Shown in pieces: positions 16,222 to 26,228 of a stretch of 64,000 nt of DNA. Location: assembly GCF_963675165.1 (NCBI RefSeq), contig NC_087377.1, positions 2,071,501 to 2,135,500 on the forward strand. The letters are read 5' to 3'. The notes below the pieces were generated by a model. That model did not search any database. It was not told the DNA's origin and saw nothing but the letters and a program-made list of their open reading frames with translations. How positions within the stretch are numbered: the stretch's first letter is position 1; every line of letters starts with the position of its first letter. The DNA is from Halichondria panicea (Eukaryota; Porifera; Demospongiae; Suberitida; Halichondriidae). Position numbers and translations under genes: made by a program.

Positions 16222-19200
16222 TCAATTGGTGGCACTATGAGCAACTGCAGTTGCTGTCCTCACATACTTGTCTTCAATTTCCTCGGCTACATCGTTACGT
16301 GCAACAGTAGGCCTCCTTAGACATTCACATATGTAAGGCCATGTCATTGGATGTTCTGGATCAGTGACTTCAAGACGCTTGGCTACCACCTTCATTAGGC
16401 GGCGATCGTTATGACGGTAATCATCTTCAATGTTTTCCAAATCACTAATCTTCACCCCGAGAGCCAATCCTAAATCAAACCAATCTTTGCTTGCATTCTT
16501 GAGACTCTCGCGAATTGTTTGAATATCATTTCCAGTCAGAACAATCGGCTGGTGTGTACTTCCTCCATCGCTGGTATCCTTCTCTGATGATGATCCTGCA
16601 TGTACACACATGTAAAGATAATAACTCAAGAAAGCAATTGCAAGTAATTATTGTTGTGGTTAGTTAAGTCCCTTAATTGTCTATTGCACGGGCAGGGTGT
16701 CATACAGGATTTTGAAGTAGAGGAGGGAAATGAGAAAGTACCAGAAAATGTTGCTAAAAAAAAGGTCAACTGTTATTTCAATACCCATGCAGCTATGGAC
16801 ATGCACTCAGTCATAATTGAAGGGGGGGATTGGAGCTAGGGAGGGGATATCCCCCTGTATGACACCATGATGGGCACAGCGTAAATTATTAAATTATAAT
16901 TATACCATTAAACTGTCTACACACACAATTAAAATCAGTATACAAACACATGTTTTACTGAATGTTATTTAAACTGCAGATAATTATACCTTGTACAGTG
17001 ACATCATTTGAACGCTTCGACAGAGATTCAACTTCTACATCTGATGGCAATGACTTTTTGCGCTGTCCTGAGGCTAGAGGATCTGTACGTACTGTGTAGG
17101 AACAGATACAGCTAGACACACTAATATTAATGGGGAATGCCGGGCCTGTAGGAATCAAGATCATGTATTTTCCAGACTGAAGGCTTTTGAATATAGCAAT
17201 CCGATTATGATACATGGAATTACGATTTGATAGAACTTTGTTTATTGGAAGTAAGATAGATGGTGGGTAATATTCGTGGGGTAAAAATCCATGGCATTCA
17301 TTGACAAATTGAAAACGGTAATTTTTTCTGTTAATTTGTTATTGCCTGTACTGCATTGCATGCGTTCTGGTAAACTGTTTTCATAGGGAGCTAGCCCACG
17401 GAAATAACGAATATTTTACCCCTCGAAAATTACCCGCTATACGGTAGTTAGGCACACACTTTAAATACACAAGTGGCCCCCTAGCAAATAAAAAGCTACA
17501 CACATAATTATGGTAAATGGAATTGGGCAGTTGTAAGAGTTCTGTTGTGATTGTGGGGCAGAGGAAGTAAACACTGTGTACATTGGTTATGTAGAAAATC
17601 ACTATGTGATAAATGGGATCAACTAGGACAACGGGGATACTTGAGGTTAGATAACTGACTTGTATCCTCTTTGTAGAGAGCTGTGTAGAGAGTGAGGAGC
17701 ACTTTCCCAGCAGCTGCATCCTTCACCTCACACTGGTAGTGACCAAAGTCCTCCTCTCTCACGCATGGGAAGCTCACAGTGTTGGGCTGATCATCAGTTG
17801 TCTTGATCTGACGTCTGGAGCCCTCTTTGCTCCAGTGGAAGGAGAAACCATATTCAGCAAACTTTAGCACCTCTAGTTCCGTCGTGCTTCCTAGACACAC
17901 GTGCTGTACATGTATAAAAAAAGTAAACAGTATAACTAAAAAAACGAAGGTTGCATTACAATATAAGGCACACACACACACACACACACACACACAAACA
18001 TACTTTTCCCAGCCATACTTGTTGTTCTGATTTGAGACTAACTGCTTTCTTGGAAGCCTCACAGATAAACCTGATTCGTGATTTGCTAGAGAGAGCACAC
18101 AGATGGTTGACGGTGCGTTTAGTACAATCCTTGGAACAGGGACATTGGAATGCAATATGCATCACCAGATGCTGGAACAGGCACTTGAGAGTGTAGAGGA
18201 TTGCTGACAGCACATATCCACAGATGTCATGAAGAGAGGTATCAGGGTCGTCTCGAGAGATTCGAATTTCGTAGCTCTTTTCGTGGGAGAGTAGTGTAAC
18301 CGTATGAACATCATCGACAGAAAACGATACACAATTTCGTTTGACGCCATCTTCCACCAATTCCCACGTCAATCCGAGAATTCCATGAGGGCCTTGGGAA
18401 ACTAGTCGAGTGATGAGCCCACAGAAGACTCCTGTTGGTACGTAACCAAAGCTGAATGTGATGTAGAGTGGTTCTGGGTTGTTGGTATCTGGTTGAGGTG
18501 GGTTGGTTAGCTCGTCTTGTGAAGCACAGTCCAAAATAGCTGGCATGAGGTAGGTGATTCGAGTGACCTTCGGATCATTGGCATCTTTGTGAACGATTTC
18601 AGAAAGAAGGTTGAGATATTGCAGCAGTATGATGAGATGCTTGGCTGGAATAATCTCTCCTTTCTTGAGCATCTTTGTAACATCAGGACCATTACAGTAC
18701 TTGATAATGGCCTTCAGTGAAAACTGCCCCATCTTGACCAACTCTGCTCGCTCAAATTCAGTGACGTGACCTTCAGAATGGAGGATGCGTAAAGCAGCAA
18801 GGATCAGCTGGCTGATGCTAGTGAAGATCACTTCAGGGGTGCAGAACATGTGGTTGCTTAGCCAGCCATCGATATCATTGGGTACATTCCCGTAATGGAG
18901 TATGGATCCAATCTTCTGTAGGTACCTGTGTGTGTGTGTGTGTGTGTGTGTGTGTGTGGGGGGGGGGTGGGTTAGGTGAGAACTACAACAGAATAATAAT
19001 GGACACACAAATCGTACGTACATGCATTGGAGGTAATTACTGTATTAAATGTTTGCCGTACATATACGTGTATGCATTAATTGGACAGAAGACAAAAATT
19101 ACAAGCTTACCAAAGACAGAATTTGGTATCTTCTTCATCCATCTCTAACAATCTCCCGATTTCCAGGCAGTCTTCCATCGACACGATTGAGTACTCCATC

Positions 19201-25200: not shown

Positions 25201-26228
25201 TAGGTACATTTTGTAGGTAGGTGTGCGTGTGTGACATGAAATTCAACAAATTGCTTACGTGGGTGTATCTGGTTCAGTTTCCAGTCTCCTGTGTGATGTG
25301 TGTAGGTGTGTGTGTGTGTATGGTATGTGTGCATGTGTGTGTGTGGGTGGGTGTGTGTGTGGGACATGCAATTCAACAAATTGCTTACCTGGGTGTATCT
25401 GGCACAGTGTCCAGCCTCCTGTGTGCATGTGTGTGTGTGTGGGTGTGGGTGTGTCCATGTGTGTGTGTGTGTGTGTGTATGTGTGGGTGTATACAATGTA
25501 CATTAATAAGCTCTTGTGAGCATTTATAAGCTCCACACTATATGGTGTCATTAAGGATTTAGTATAGAGGGGGAAATAAGGCGTGCTTTTGAAAAGTAAC
25601 CAGAACATTTTTCTGAAAAAGGTCAACTGTTATTTCAATTATAATGAAATAACCCATTTTTGGTTGCCTGAATTGCAATTTTGCAATTCAGGCAACCAAA
25701 AATGGGTTATTTCAACCCATTTGTTTTTACAGTGTATACCCTGTTTTAGTATGTAACACTGCCAGCTATGGTCACTCAGTCATACAACTATAGTACATGA
25801 ATTTTAGGTGAGGGGGGGATTGGAGCCAGAGGGAGGATATCCCTGTATGACACCCTGACAATGATTAGCTATAATATTTTTATAGCCTATTAAAACTGTA
25901 CTTTGCTCACGTTCTCCTCTCTGCTGGGGTCTTGAAACCGAGTTTCTTGCGAATCCACGGCACTAACCTGATGTGTGTGTGTTAGGGGGTCGAGTTTGTG
26001 TACGGACAATTATAATAATTATTACAATCAAAGTACTTCTTGATGCATGGTGGTATATGCAAGTTACTAGCTAGAGTAACACAACATGCAGAGCTTCCAT
26101 TGATGAGCTCCAATTCTGATGAGGTGATTCCACCTCTGACTAATGGAATGATCCTCCCTCCATGCAATCACAAGGTGGCACTCTAGTCTACATGTGTTCA
26201 CTCACCCTGAGTCTTGTCCAGTAGCCAT
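16222..26228 (-). CDS. Gene A: ANK-Roc-COR-Ig-Death protein, 16 exons, 1310 aa
   Basis: Minus-strand exons: 26206-26228 (ATG), 25911-25967, 25389-25418, 25259-25288, 24841-25163, 24351-24452, 23937-24086, 22483-22542, 21549-21614, 21387-21437, 20846-21007, 19111-20356, 18004-18925, 17660-17903, 16990-17082 and 16222-16595 (TGA). Every junction is GT-AG and keeps phase; the sum is 3933 nt. Order: a TPDTP-containing head; ankyrin repeats (about 45-235; RPPVHQACWGGYLEITRALV); Ser/Thr-rich linker; a 54-aa helical segment; Roc GTPase with P-loop GPPFVGKTTT (about 384), DVGGQP and GTHVDKL; COR-like region with YVPTGVFCGLITRL; Cys-rich stretch (FQCPC); Ig-like domain (about 1075-1155; FHWSKEG and DFGHYQCEV); basic segment with SLSKR; death domain (about 1187-1310; IRESLKNASKDWFDLGLALG). 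No signal peptide or membrane segment, so it is probably cytoplasmic. DAPK1 shares ANK-Roc-COR-Death but has an N-terminal kinase and no Ig. Confidence 0.88.
16697..16868. mobile_element. MITE-like insertion, GGTGTCATACAGG ends, in gene A intron
   Basis: Inverted ends ggtgtcatacagg / cctgtatgacacc around about 170 bp, within the intron between the last two exons of gene A. Related copies at about 43373-43540 (same intron of gene B), 25545-25856 and 55945-56155. Confidence 0.55.
17225..17447. mobile_element. CCGTATAGCGGG-family MITE, gene A intron
   Basis: The right end is gaaaattacccgctatacggta; the left end is degraded (gtgggtaatattcgtggggtaaa). Related copies lie at 23551-23745, about 33425-33624, 37285-37470, 43940-44117 and 53860-54053. 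Confidence 0.6.
18926..19110 (-). other. Intron present in gene A only, with (GT)n and poly-G
   Basis: Splits the Roc-COR coding region after the codon context FCLW. Gene B reads straight through at the homologous place (TTICLLYLHSIG). The intron carries a (GT)n tract on the plus strand (18928-18957) followed by poly-G (18958-18967). Confidence 0.8.
21751..22140. repeat. Palindrome cluster in gene A intron
   Basis: gtaggaaaggcaatgaataa occurs at 21751 and 22087 and is mirrored at about 22121-22140, giving a hairpin with about 20-bp arms. A second hairpin (atgaataacat...atgttattcat) lies at about 22037-22075. The whole block is conserved at 52219-52620 in gene B, so it predates the duplication. 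Confidence 0.75.
22646..22910. repeat. (CA)n microsatellite, about 265 bp
   Basis: Starts with a few cacg units, then uninterrupted ac dinucleotides. The same site in gene B (53127-53208) is only about 80 bp. Open frames of Thr-His or Cys-Val through it are not genes. Confidence 0.98.
23144..23177. repeat. Hairpin ctgctagcaggtcacta
   Basis: Left arm ctgctagcaggtcacta and right arm tagtgacctgctagcag are perfectly complementary around about 8 nt. Conserved at about 53420-53457. Confidence 0.7.
23551..23745. mobile_element. CCGTATAGCGGG-family MITE, best copy, TA target site
   Basis: Ends ta-ccatatagcgggtaattttcg and cgaaaattacccgctatacgg-ta are inverted repeats of more than 20 bp flanked by TA, as expected for Tc1/mariner-type insertion. 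About 195 bp with no coding capacity. The gene B counterpart at 53860-54053 has lost part of the left terminus. Confidence 0.75.
25220..25495. repeat. (GT)n-rich duplicated segment carrying two 30-nt exons
   Basis: Two units share acatgaaattcaacaaattg or acatgcaattcaacaaattg, a 30-nt exon (25259-25288; 25389-25418) and GT-rich flanks. These are exons 3 and 4 of gene A, encoding RLDTVPDTP and RLETEPDTP-type peptides. The gene B equivalent is 55440-55885. Confidence 0.75.
25646..25713. mobile_element. Perfect 33-bp-arm palindrome, absent from gene B copy
   Basis: Arms 25646-25678 and 25681-25713 are perfectly complementary with a 2-nt spacer. The gene B locus runs from ggtcaac directly into tataccctg (near 56022), so the palindrome with short flanks is an insertion in A or a deletion from B. 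Foldback-type element likely. Confidence 0.75.

What the first reader, a model, noticed from the sequence alone, without database searches (positions are those of the whole stretch)
16222..26228. DAPK1-like scaffold without a kinase but with an Ig-like domain between COR and death domain
Seen: a phase-consistent 16-exon model joins ankyrin repeats, Roc (GPPFVGKTTT, DVGGQP, GTHVDKL), a COR-like region, a Cys-rich stretch, a C-type DxGxYxC Ig-like domain and a death domain. Known: DAPK1 combines kinase, ankyrin, Roc-COR and death domains; MALT1 is an example of an intracellular Ig domain near a death-fold domain. Inference: this is an intracellular GTPase-gated death-fold adaptor, possibly innate-immune. 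I know of no described protein with exactly this order.
Basis: partly seen in the sequence, partly recalled or inferred. Interest (0 to 1): 0.78.

Follow-up and report, generated by a model that had tools for sequence, protein, structure and literature searches.

The report
Hypervariable ankyrin-GTPase-Ig-death receptor family
The gene is real and belongs to a family of over a hundred related loci in this animal genome whose ankyrin tip varies at likely target-binding positions, as in a set of immune receptors, while the GTPase switch stays nearly constant.

Summary
The 16-exon model on the minus strand (26228 to 16222) holds: every intron is GT-AG, phases agree, about 1310 aa. One acceptor, E15, is probably 9 nt further in. 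The Ig and death domains are supported by the family: 19 of 20 Ig exons match Pfam Ig_3, and 7 of 8 death exons match Death weakly. Exon borders around the Ig exon are conserved in paralogues.

In this genome 113 of 127 COR places are followed by an Ig-like exon. Ankyrin exons were seen upstream of 59 of these, a death exon near 55 (lower bounds, adjacency only). The ankyrin exon has a frozen framework with hypervariable codons at positions that form the binding face of designed ankyrin proteins. There nonsynonymous change runs about 6 times the exon's synonymous rate; the Roc exon has dN/dS 0.18. A second array on another contig repeats the pattern. Neighbouring genes share ends but not cores.

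Best reading: a ROCO family of cytosolic, NLR-like recognition receptors without a detected kinase. Closest parallel: brown-algal LRR-ROCO. No transcript or protein evidence; host unnamed.

The parts
26206..26228 (-). E1, start codon exon (MATGQDSG)
   Evidence: donor GTGAGTGA
25911..25967 (-). E2, basic N-terminal exon
   Evidence: recurs at 95% identity in L011
25389..25418 (-). E3, 10-aa repeat exon (RLDTVPDTP)
25259..25288 (-). E4, 10-aa repeat exon (RLETEPDTP)
24841..25163 (-). E5, ankyrin repeats with hypervariable binding-face codons (aa 47-155)
   Evidence: Pfam Ank 7.5e-11; best PDB match a DARPin; hypervariability and selection
24351..24452 (-). E6, ankyrin repeat (aa 155-189), variable at the corresponding positions by eye
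23937..24086 (-). E7, last ankyrin repeat (aa 189-239)
22483..22542 (-). E8, linker exon
   Evidence: found in 3 paralogues
21549..21614 (-). E9, linker exon
   Evidence: AG and GT kept in 7 of 7 paralogues with a match
21387..21437 (-). E10, linker exon
   Evidence: AG and GT kept in 6 of 6 paralogues with a match
20846..21007 (-).
   Evidence: 29 matches in the genome
19111..20356 (-). E12, Roc GTPase plus start of COR-A (aa 352-767)
   Evidence: Roc PF08477 in 13 of 13 family members at E up to 0.1, best 7.5e-5; window gene 0.0015, below its cut-off; PDB profile match to LRRK2 Roc E 0.009; dN/dS 0.18
18004..18925 (-). E13, COR region with a conserved Cys cluster near its end (aa 767-1074)
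   Evidence: COR-A PF16095 at 10 places that coincide with family loci incl. the second window gene (1.4e-4), all below the cut-off, the window gene itself not listed; COR-B weak in 4 of 16
17660..17903 (-). E14, Ig-like domain (aa 1075-1156)
   Evidence: PF00047 5e-5; 19 of 20 members Ig_3; best PDB profile hits are Ig-domain proteins
16990..17082 (-). E15, linker exon (acceptor corrected from 17091); frame is kept if skipped
16222..16595 (-). E16, death domain and stop (aa 1190-end)
   Evidence: Death in 7 of 8 members at E up to 0.1; 45% identical to the death domain upstream of a NACHT frame in the same genome
42899..55425 (-). Second family gene in the window, from its ankyrin exon to its death exon: ankyrin 55105-55425, E11 49947-50105, Roc-COR 44728-46941, Ig 44344-44592, death 42899-43270 (start exon not located)
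36655..37944 (-). Remnant of a third copy: Ig exon with two stops (37708-37944) and an open death exon (36655-37056)

Best explanation
A cytosolic, NLR-like recognition receptor built on a ROCO switch. The ankyrin repeats bind a ligand through a hypervariable concave face. Binding changes the nucleotide state or dimerisation of Roc-COR. That frees the Ig-death tail, whose death domain then clusters with other death domains (of the same family as those in front of some NACHT domains in this genome) to start a cell-death or inflammatory response. The family is diversified by duplication, exchange of exon modules between paralogues, and positive selection on binding-face codons. Shown by sequence: exon structure, domain order, family size, hypervariability with an excess of nonsynonymous change, module mosaicism, kinship of the death domain with NLR death domains. 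Inferred: cytosolic location, ligand binding by ankyrin, GTP gating, death-domain signalling, immune role.
For: (1) 113 of 127 COR places have an Ig-like exon downstream on the same strand, median gap 123 nt; of the 113, ankyrin upstream in 59, a death exon downstream in 22 (type A) or 23 (type B), type B upstream in 15 (lower bounds from capped, partly given lists; adjacency only). (2) Ankyrin exon, the 21 most similar of 114 listed copies: 17 of 107 columns above 1.5 bits, although 134 of 210 pairs differ at fewer than 0.14 of synonymous sites. In 10 disjoint pairs pN at 8 binding-face columns is 0.425 against pS 0.069 over the exon (ratio 6.1, Fisher 1e-28). (3) In 13 near copies Roc has 0 of 414 columns above 1.5 bits, COR 2 of 305, Ig 1 of 79, E11 3 of 53; dN/dS Roc 0.18, COR 0.29, Ig 0.45, death 0.42. 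(4) Independent ankyrin array on C6 (18 of its 20 listed copies): pN/pS 1.88 in 9 disjoint pairs, p 1e-5, corresponding positions variable by eye. (5) The two genes in the window: ankyrin dS 0.04, E11 0.00, death 0.05, but Roc 1.79, COR 0.98, Ig 0.74. (6) Death domain 45% identical to one ahead of a NACHT frame; 9 of 15 NACHT places given to the check have such a domain within 5 kb upstream (15 of 102 listed, picked on C14 and C6). (7) G1, G3 and G4 motifs kept in 13 of 13 Roc exons aligned.
Against: No transcript, protein, ligand or expression data. The death exon alone is below the Pfam cut-off. COR is weakly recognised. AlphaFold models failed (pLDDT 48 and 34), so folds rest on sequence. 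The selection tests are pairwise counts on recombining paralogues, not likelihood models; when divergent pairs are pooled the ankyrin exons E5 and E6 give dN/dS 0.59 and 0.46 (6 and 8 loci), and only comparisons of close copies exceed 1. On C6, synonymous difference is also higher in hypervariable codons (12% against 7%), unlike on C1 (8.3% against 8.4%). For 58 of 113 loci no death exon was seen with the lists given. The E16 death exon is itself variable (17 of 91 columns, n=7, two of them very divergent).
Confidence: 0.66

Rival explanations
1. Kinase-less DAPK-like apoptosis scaffold with a fixed cellular partner; copy number is drift and the ankyrin changes are relaxed constraint.
For: Same kinds of parts as DAPK1 (ankyrin, Roc-COR, death domain); moderate dN/dS in Ig and death exons, and 0.59 for E5 when divergent copies are pooled.
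Against: Relaxed constraint does not give pN six times pS at surface positions while the rest of the exon is near neutral or conserved, and an excess is seen on two contigs.
Confidence: 0.12
2. Allorecognition system: the variable ankyrin face reads self proteins or fusion partners rather than microbes.
For: Sessile marine animals use cell-death systems in self/non-self recognition (PMC8195603, passages); hypervariability fits either use.
Against: The protein looks cytosolic (no strong hydrophobic segment; no signal peptide by eye, not tested with a predictor); nothing links it to cell contact.
Confidence: 0.12
3. The 16-exon model fuses two neighbouring genes (an ankyrin gene and a Roc-COR-Ig-death gene), so the variable module is not on the receptor.
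For: The ankyrin exon E5 lies 4.5 kb upstream of Roc across a 270-nt CA repeat; E8-E10 are low-complexity linkers; no RNA.
Against: All junctions E5-E12 are phase-consistent GT-AG; E9 and E10 recur with conserved borders in 7 and 6 paralogues and E11 in 19 loci, 12 of them with the same AG and 14 with the same GT; ankyrin lies upstream in 59 of 113 loci.
Confidence: 0.07
4. Assembly duplicates or decaying copies inflate the family; only a few genes are active.
For: Some loci are identical in score and spacing; one remnant with stops lies in the window; L025 has an Ig stretch with stops.
Against: 120 of 123 Roc match rows have no stop inside; Roc dN/dS is 0.18 among 13 copies.
Confidence: 0.1

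Closest known systems
Brown-algal LRR-ROCO candidate immune receptors (PMC11378527: abstract, section 10 and passages read)
   Same: ROCO switch with an N-terminal repeat domain whose concave, exon-encoded positions are under diversifying selection; expanded, shuffled family proposed as immune receptors
   Different: LRR instead of ankyrin; no Ig or death domain reported; up to 47 genes in a species there, at least 113 COR-Ig loci here; a different kingdom
DAPK1 (ROCO group 3; PMC6337361, passages read)
   Same: Roc-COR and C-terminal death domain, no LRR; ankyrin repeats (recalled)
   Different: No kinase found here; Ig-like domain between COR and death domain; multigene, hypervariable ankyrin
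Sponge NLRD receptors, death-NACHT-LRR (PMC12909245, abstract and passages read)
   Same: In this genome a death domain ahead of a NACHT frame is 45% identical (LRRs there not tested); large expansion in one genome; repeat-type sensor
   Different: GTPase Roc-COR instead of NACHT; ankyrin instead of LRR; death domain C-terminal in this gene
Amphimedon TRADD-N expansions with death-like domains and ankyrin repeats (PMC8195603, passages read)
   Same: Sponge expansion joining death-fold domains to ankyrin repeats
   Different: No Roc-COR in the passages seen; TRADD-N was not looked for here
MALT1 (recalled)
   Same: Cytosolic Ig-like domain in a protein with a death-fold domain
   Different: MALT1 has a paracaspase; none among the Pfam hits here
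Plant highly variable NLRs (PMC8226289, passages read)
   Same: The ankyrin exon alone passes the criterion of 10 or more positions over 1.5 bits
   Different: Criterion was made for near-allelic series; here paralogues were compared

Membership tests
ROCO | Roc G domain with P-loop, DxxG and THxD-type motifs | tested here: met
   Motifs kept in 13 of 13 Roc exons aligned; PF08477 in 13 of 13 at E up to 0.1, but the window gene is below the curated cut-off
ROCO | COR domain directly after Roc | tested here: inconclusive
   COR-A found at 10 family places by genome scan (E 2e-5 to 6e-4, all below the cut-off); COR-B in 4 of 16 (best 0.068) and COR-A in 2 of 16 (best 0.0066) of the E13 exons, none in the window's own; no PDB match; structure model failed
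DAPK1 subfamily | N-terminal calmodulin-regulated kinase | tested here: not met
   No kinase in the 370-aa N-terminal part nor in 6 of the 10 upstream minus-strand frames of 85 aa or more listed; a kinase in short exons further upstream is not excluded
DAPK1 subfamily | C-terminal death domain | tested here: met
   7 of 8 members match Death at E up to 0.1, best 1.7e-4, window gene below its cut-off; one weak PDB hit, a leucine-rich repeat and death domain protein, E 0.94
DAPK1 subfamily | Roc-COR clusters with DAPK1 in a tree | not tested
   No set of animal ROCO sequences was at hand and no tree was built
Immunoglobulin superfamily | Ig profile match with C-strand Trp and DxGxYxC F strand | tested here: met
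   19 of 20 Ig_3, 16 of 20 ig at E up to 0.01; Trp and F-strand Cys invariant in 20 of 20. The divergent type of L031 has no Pfam Ig match
Immunoglobulin superfamily | Beta-sandwich fold | tested here: inconclusive
   Model of pLDDT 48, mostly strands but too poor to use
Immunoglobulin superfamily | Canonical B-F disulphide | tested here: not met
   No Cys at the inward B-strand position in 20 of 20; 4 of 20 have one a residue earlier (my reading of the register)
NLR (STAND) | NACHT domain | tested here: not met
   NACHT is not among Pfam hits of the window's Roc exon or of the 13 members at E up to 0.1
Highly variable receptor criterion (PMC8226289) | At least 10 alignment positions of 1.5 bits or more | tested here: met
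   17 of 107 in E5 (n=21), 14 of 99 in C6 (n=18), but paralogues, not alleles

The most novel reading that the evidence does not exclude
Early animals evolved a second large class of intracellular immune receptors beside NLRs: a ROCO-GTPase class with a natural, germline-diversified DARPin-like ankyrin binding face, Ig spacer and interchangeable death-domain outputs, whose modules are mixed among more than a hundred genes.
Probability: 0.55. Interest if true: 0.88.

Novelty: new variant of a known kind. Interest (0 to 1): 0.75.

Why it matters
If right, an early animal carries a ROCO-based receptor repertoire parallel to its NLRs. The repeat scaffold, and much the same positions, that protein engineers chose for artificial binders would then have been used by natural selection. 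It would make testable whether ROCO GTPases, known from LRRK2 and DAPK1, are ancestrally cytosolic danger sensors, and would give an animal case beside brown-algal LRR-ROCO.

Tried and rejected
Structure prediction: the Ig exon with a 2-row alignment and the second window gene's Roc-COR with 3 rows gave pLDDT 48 and 34. Too poor for a fold search, so none was run.

First thought that an uninterrupted 931-aa frame in C6 (L029) proved Ig fusion without splicing. Rejected: the stretch between COR and Ig there is a 63-nt GT..AG stretch that looks like an intron that happens to be open.

First thought that the distant half of the family lacks the Ig (0 of 43 with the window Ig as query). Rejected: a divergent Ig-like exon (30-35% identity) sits at the same place. 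That type has no Pfam Ig match of its own.

Considered a targeted-mutation mechanism for the hypervariable codons (third positions vary least, first two scrambled). Not favoured: the usual third base differs between columns, and synonymous change in those codons equals the framework on C1 (68 of 823 against 1186 of 14123). C6 shows an excess (64 of 523 against 542 of 8159), so it is not fully excluded.

One search had two of the eight binding-face columns shifted by one; corrected. The eight columns follow the DARPin register as I recall it (passages read say only that the randomised positions lie at defined surface or concave positions). I had already seen the variability when I chose them.

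The per-domain entropy mixes distant groups for Roc, COR, Ig and death (57 of 411, 65 of 305, 11 of 81 and 19 of 94 columns over 1.5 bits there); the comparison matched to near copies is.

A scan of GTDB prokaryote contigs with the COR profile gave 31 pattern stretches and no relative. NCBIfam gave only weak S8, small-GTPase and FlhF matches, PADLOC nothing. No tRNA or Rfam match in the window.
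Full report
OBSERVATION. The gene runs on the minus strand. I rebuilt the 16 exons with exact borders: all introns GT..AG, all phases consistent, CDS 3942 nt, 1313 aa, one terminal stop. Paralogues suggest that E15 starts at 17082, not 17091 (1310 aa), because L011, L014 and L015 lack the first acceptor while L020 keeps it; L019 has neither; skipping E15 also keeps the frame.

DOMAINS. Ankyrin exons are strong (best PDB match a DARPin). Roc is recognised in 13 of 13 family members at E up to 0.1, the window gene below the curated cut-off, with weak profile hits to LRRK2 Roc (best 0.009). 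COR is weaker: 2 of 16 members for COR-A, 4 of 16 for COR-B, none for the window's own exon, no PDB hit. A genome scan with COR-A finds 10 places that coincide with family loci, all below the cut-off, among them the second gene in this window. The Ig exon passes Pfam's cut-off in the window gene. In 19 of 20 copies it matches Ig_3 at E up to 0.01, and a profile of it finds Ig proteins in the PDB (Off-track 1.9e-8 summed over five weak stretches, Dscam 1e-4). Trp and the F-strand Cys are invariant in 20 of 20; the usual B-strand Cys is absent by my reading. That suits a reducing cytosol, which is inference. The death exon is weak alone and supported by the family. E11 (aa 298-352) has no Pfam match and stays unexplained; it has 29 matches.

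FAMILY. With the Roc exon as query the genome gives 123 match rows (101 of 281 candidates scored), which I reduced to 99 places by dropping or merging 24 second fragments; 55 of the 56 nearer places have the Ig exon 1.6-2.9 kb downstream. A divergent relative (L031) carries a divergent Ig-like exon at the same place. With both Ig types (70 of 70 and 72 of 73 rows given) and a COR query (129 rows, 127 used, two second pieces dropped), 113 of 127 COR places are followed by an Ig-like exon, 58 of the window type and 55 of the other, median gap 123 nt, range 49 to 1359; 14 are not, six of them on C2 and eight with short or weak COR matches. A few of the 113 are partial or hold stops. Exon borders on both sides of the Ig exon are conserved although the introns are not. 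So COR-Ig is a fixed pair in most of this family.

ARCHITECTURE. For the 113 places I looked for ankyrin and death exons with parts of the lists that I had: 88 of 114 ankyrin, 73 of 150 type-A death and 58 of 150 type-B death rows, the death lists themselves being capped (471 and 632 candidates). Ankyrin lies upstream in 59, death type A downstream in 22, type B downstream in 23, type B upstream in 15 (five of these also have one downstream, so theirs may belong to the previous gene), and no death exon was seen for 58. These are lower bounds and adjacency within set distances, not transcripts. The type-B death exon is recognised by Pfam in L026 (7e-5, above the cut-off) and weakly in L029 (0.008).

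DIVERSITY. Ankyrin exon E5 was compared in the 21 most similar of 114 listed copies (the window gene, the second window gene, three loci and 16 fetched exons). The framework is almost frozen, while 19 codons carry 5 to 10 residues. Of the 210 pairs, 134 differ at fewer than 0.14 of synonymous sites, and 129 of these 134 have dN above dS, pooled ratio 1.62 (pairs overlap). In 10 disjoint pairs the whole exon has pN/pS 1.48 (Fisher p 0.005) and the eight binding-face columns pN 0.425 against pS 0.069; the other columns alone give 1.10 against the same pS. In the phmmer alignment the variable residues R-W, I and A-V of the window gene fall on positions that vary among DARPin repeats (my reading). 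E6 varies at the corresponding places (by eye). An independent array on C6, 18 of its 20 listed exons, repeats the picture: 14 of 99 columns over 1.5 bits, pN/pS 1.88 in 9 disjoint pairs, p 1e-5, with pN above pS in 8 of the 9. Against this, in 13 near copies Roc has no column over 1.5 bits and dN/dS 0.18. Results the other way: with divergent copies pooled, E5 and E6 give 0.59 and 0.46 (6 and 8 loci); the small exons E7 and E10 give 3.47 and 1.35 on few codons. The contrast between a constant switch and a diversified sensor is what marks recognition receptors; plant hvNLRs are defined by 10 or more positions over 1.5 bits (PMC8226289, passages), though there on near-allelic series.

MOSAICISM. 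The two genes in the window are nearly identical at synonymous sites in ankyrin (dS 0.04), E11 (0.00) and death exon (0.05), but far apart in Roc (1.79), COR (0.98) and Ig (0.74). The same holds against the distant L031/L048 gene, if those two loci are one gene as their order suggests: ankyrin 0.11, Roc and COR saturated, Ig 1.83, death 0.33. Among near copies, two types of the 3' half of E13 and two types of Ig occur in all four combinations. Modules have therefore been exchanged between paralogues. E6-E11 and E15 are all of phase 1-1, which makes this easy.

OUTPUT. The death domain is 45% identical over 91 residues to one lying ahead of a NACHT frame on C14. Of 15 NACHT places given to the check (102 listed; the 15 were picked on C14 and C6, with 62 of 150 death rows), 9 have a relative of this death domain within 5 kb upstream. 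A shared death-domain hub with NLRs is thus plausible; that they interact is inference.

MECHANISM. Most likely a cytosolic receptor: ankyrin face binds, Roc-COR switches by GTP and dimerisation as discussed for other ROCO proteins (PMC6337361 passages, and recall), the Ig acts as spacer or interaction domain and the death domain nucleates signalling. Confidence 0.66 for the receptor reading as a whole; about 0.93 for the domain order.

COMPARISON AND NOVELTY. DAPK1 shares parts but its defining kinase was not found, so I do not file it there. Brown-algal LRR-ROCO proteins work like this on paper: repeat exons with positively selected concave positions on a ROCO switch (PMC11378527, abstract, section 10 and passages). 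[quoted passage not shown] this genome has at least 113 COR-Ig places, some of which may be duplicates or decayed. The ten paper searches (six of them with ROCO, Roc-COR or MFHAS1 as a term) listed no account of a ROCO with Ig and death domain, but the held library is partial, most listed papers were not opened, and one figure with up to forty animal ROCO combinations could not be seen. I rate it a new variant of a known kind.

LIMITS. Fold models failed. Selection was measured by counting on recombining paralogues.

Noticed in passing
window 9935-10384, 10892-11299, 11812-12150, 29392-29763 (minus): Four copies of another death-like exon; Pfam Death 0.0022 (first) and 0.0018 (third), none at 0.01 for the fourth, the second not scanned. 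The neighbourhood is rich in death-fold exons.
   Followed up: partly
window 4362-4634 (+): Fragment of the DNA primase large subunit, PF04104 1.5e-13.
   Followed up: no
window 6839-7150 (-): Short frame that reads like part of an AP endonuclease (recalled motif); no Pfam match for the piece tested.
   Followed up: no
L030 464-5773 (C3:5440500-5446500): Roc-COR frame of 1769 aa with a very long Ser/Thr/Lys/Asp repeat inserted between Roc and COR.
   Followed up: no
genome, C14, C13, C7 and others: 102 NACHT matches scored of 265 candidates; large NLR-like expansion, some with an upstream death exon.
   Followed up: partly
L035 440-1864 (C1:2559900-2565900): A death exon ending in a stop lies about 650 nt before a new ankyrin exon; in 7 of the 18 death exons tested an ankyrin exon starts about 1.0-1.1 kb after the death exon's start, as if genes were packed head to tail.
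   Followed up: partly
window 22640-22910: Long CA repeat inside the intron between E7 and E8.
   Followed up: no
window 18004-18925 (-), end of E13: Cys residues invariant in 16 of 16 copies near the end of COR (C261, C276, C288; C263 nearly), a possible metal site.
   Followed up: no
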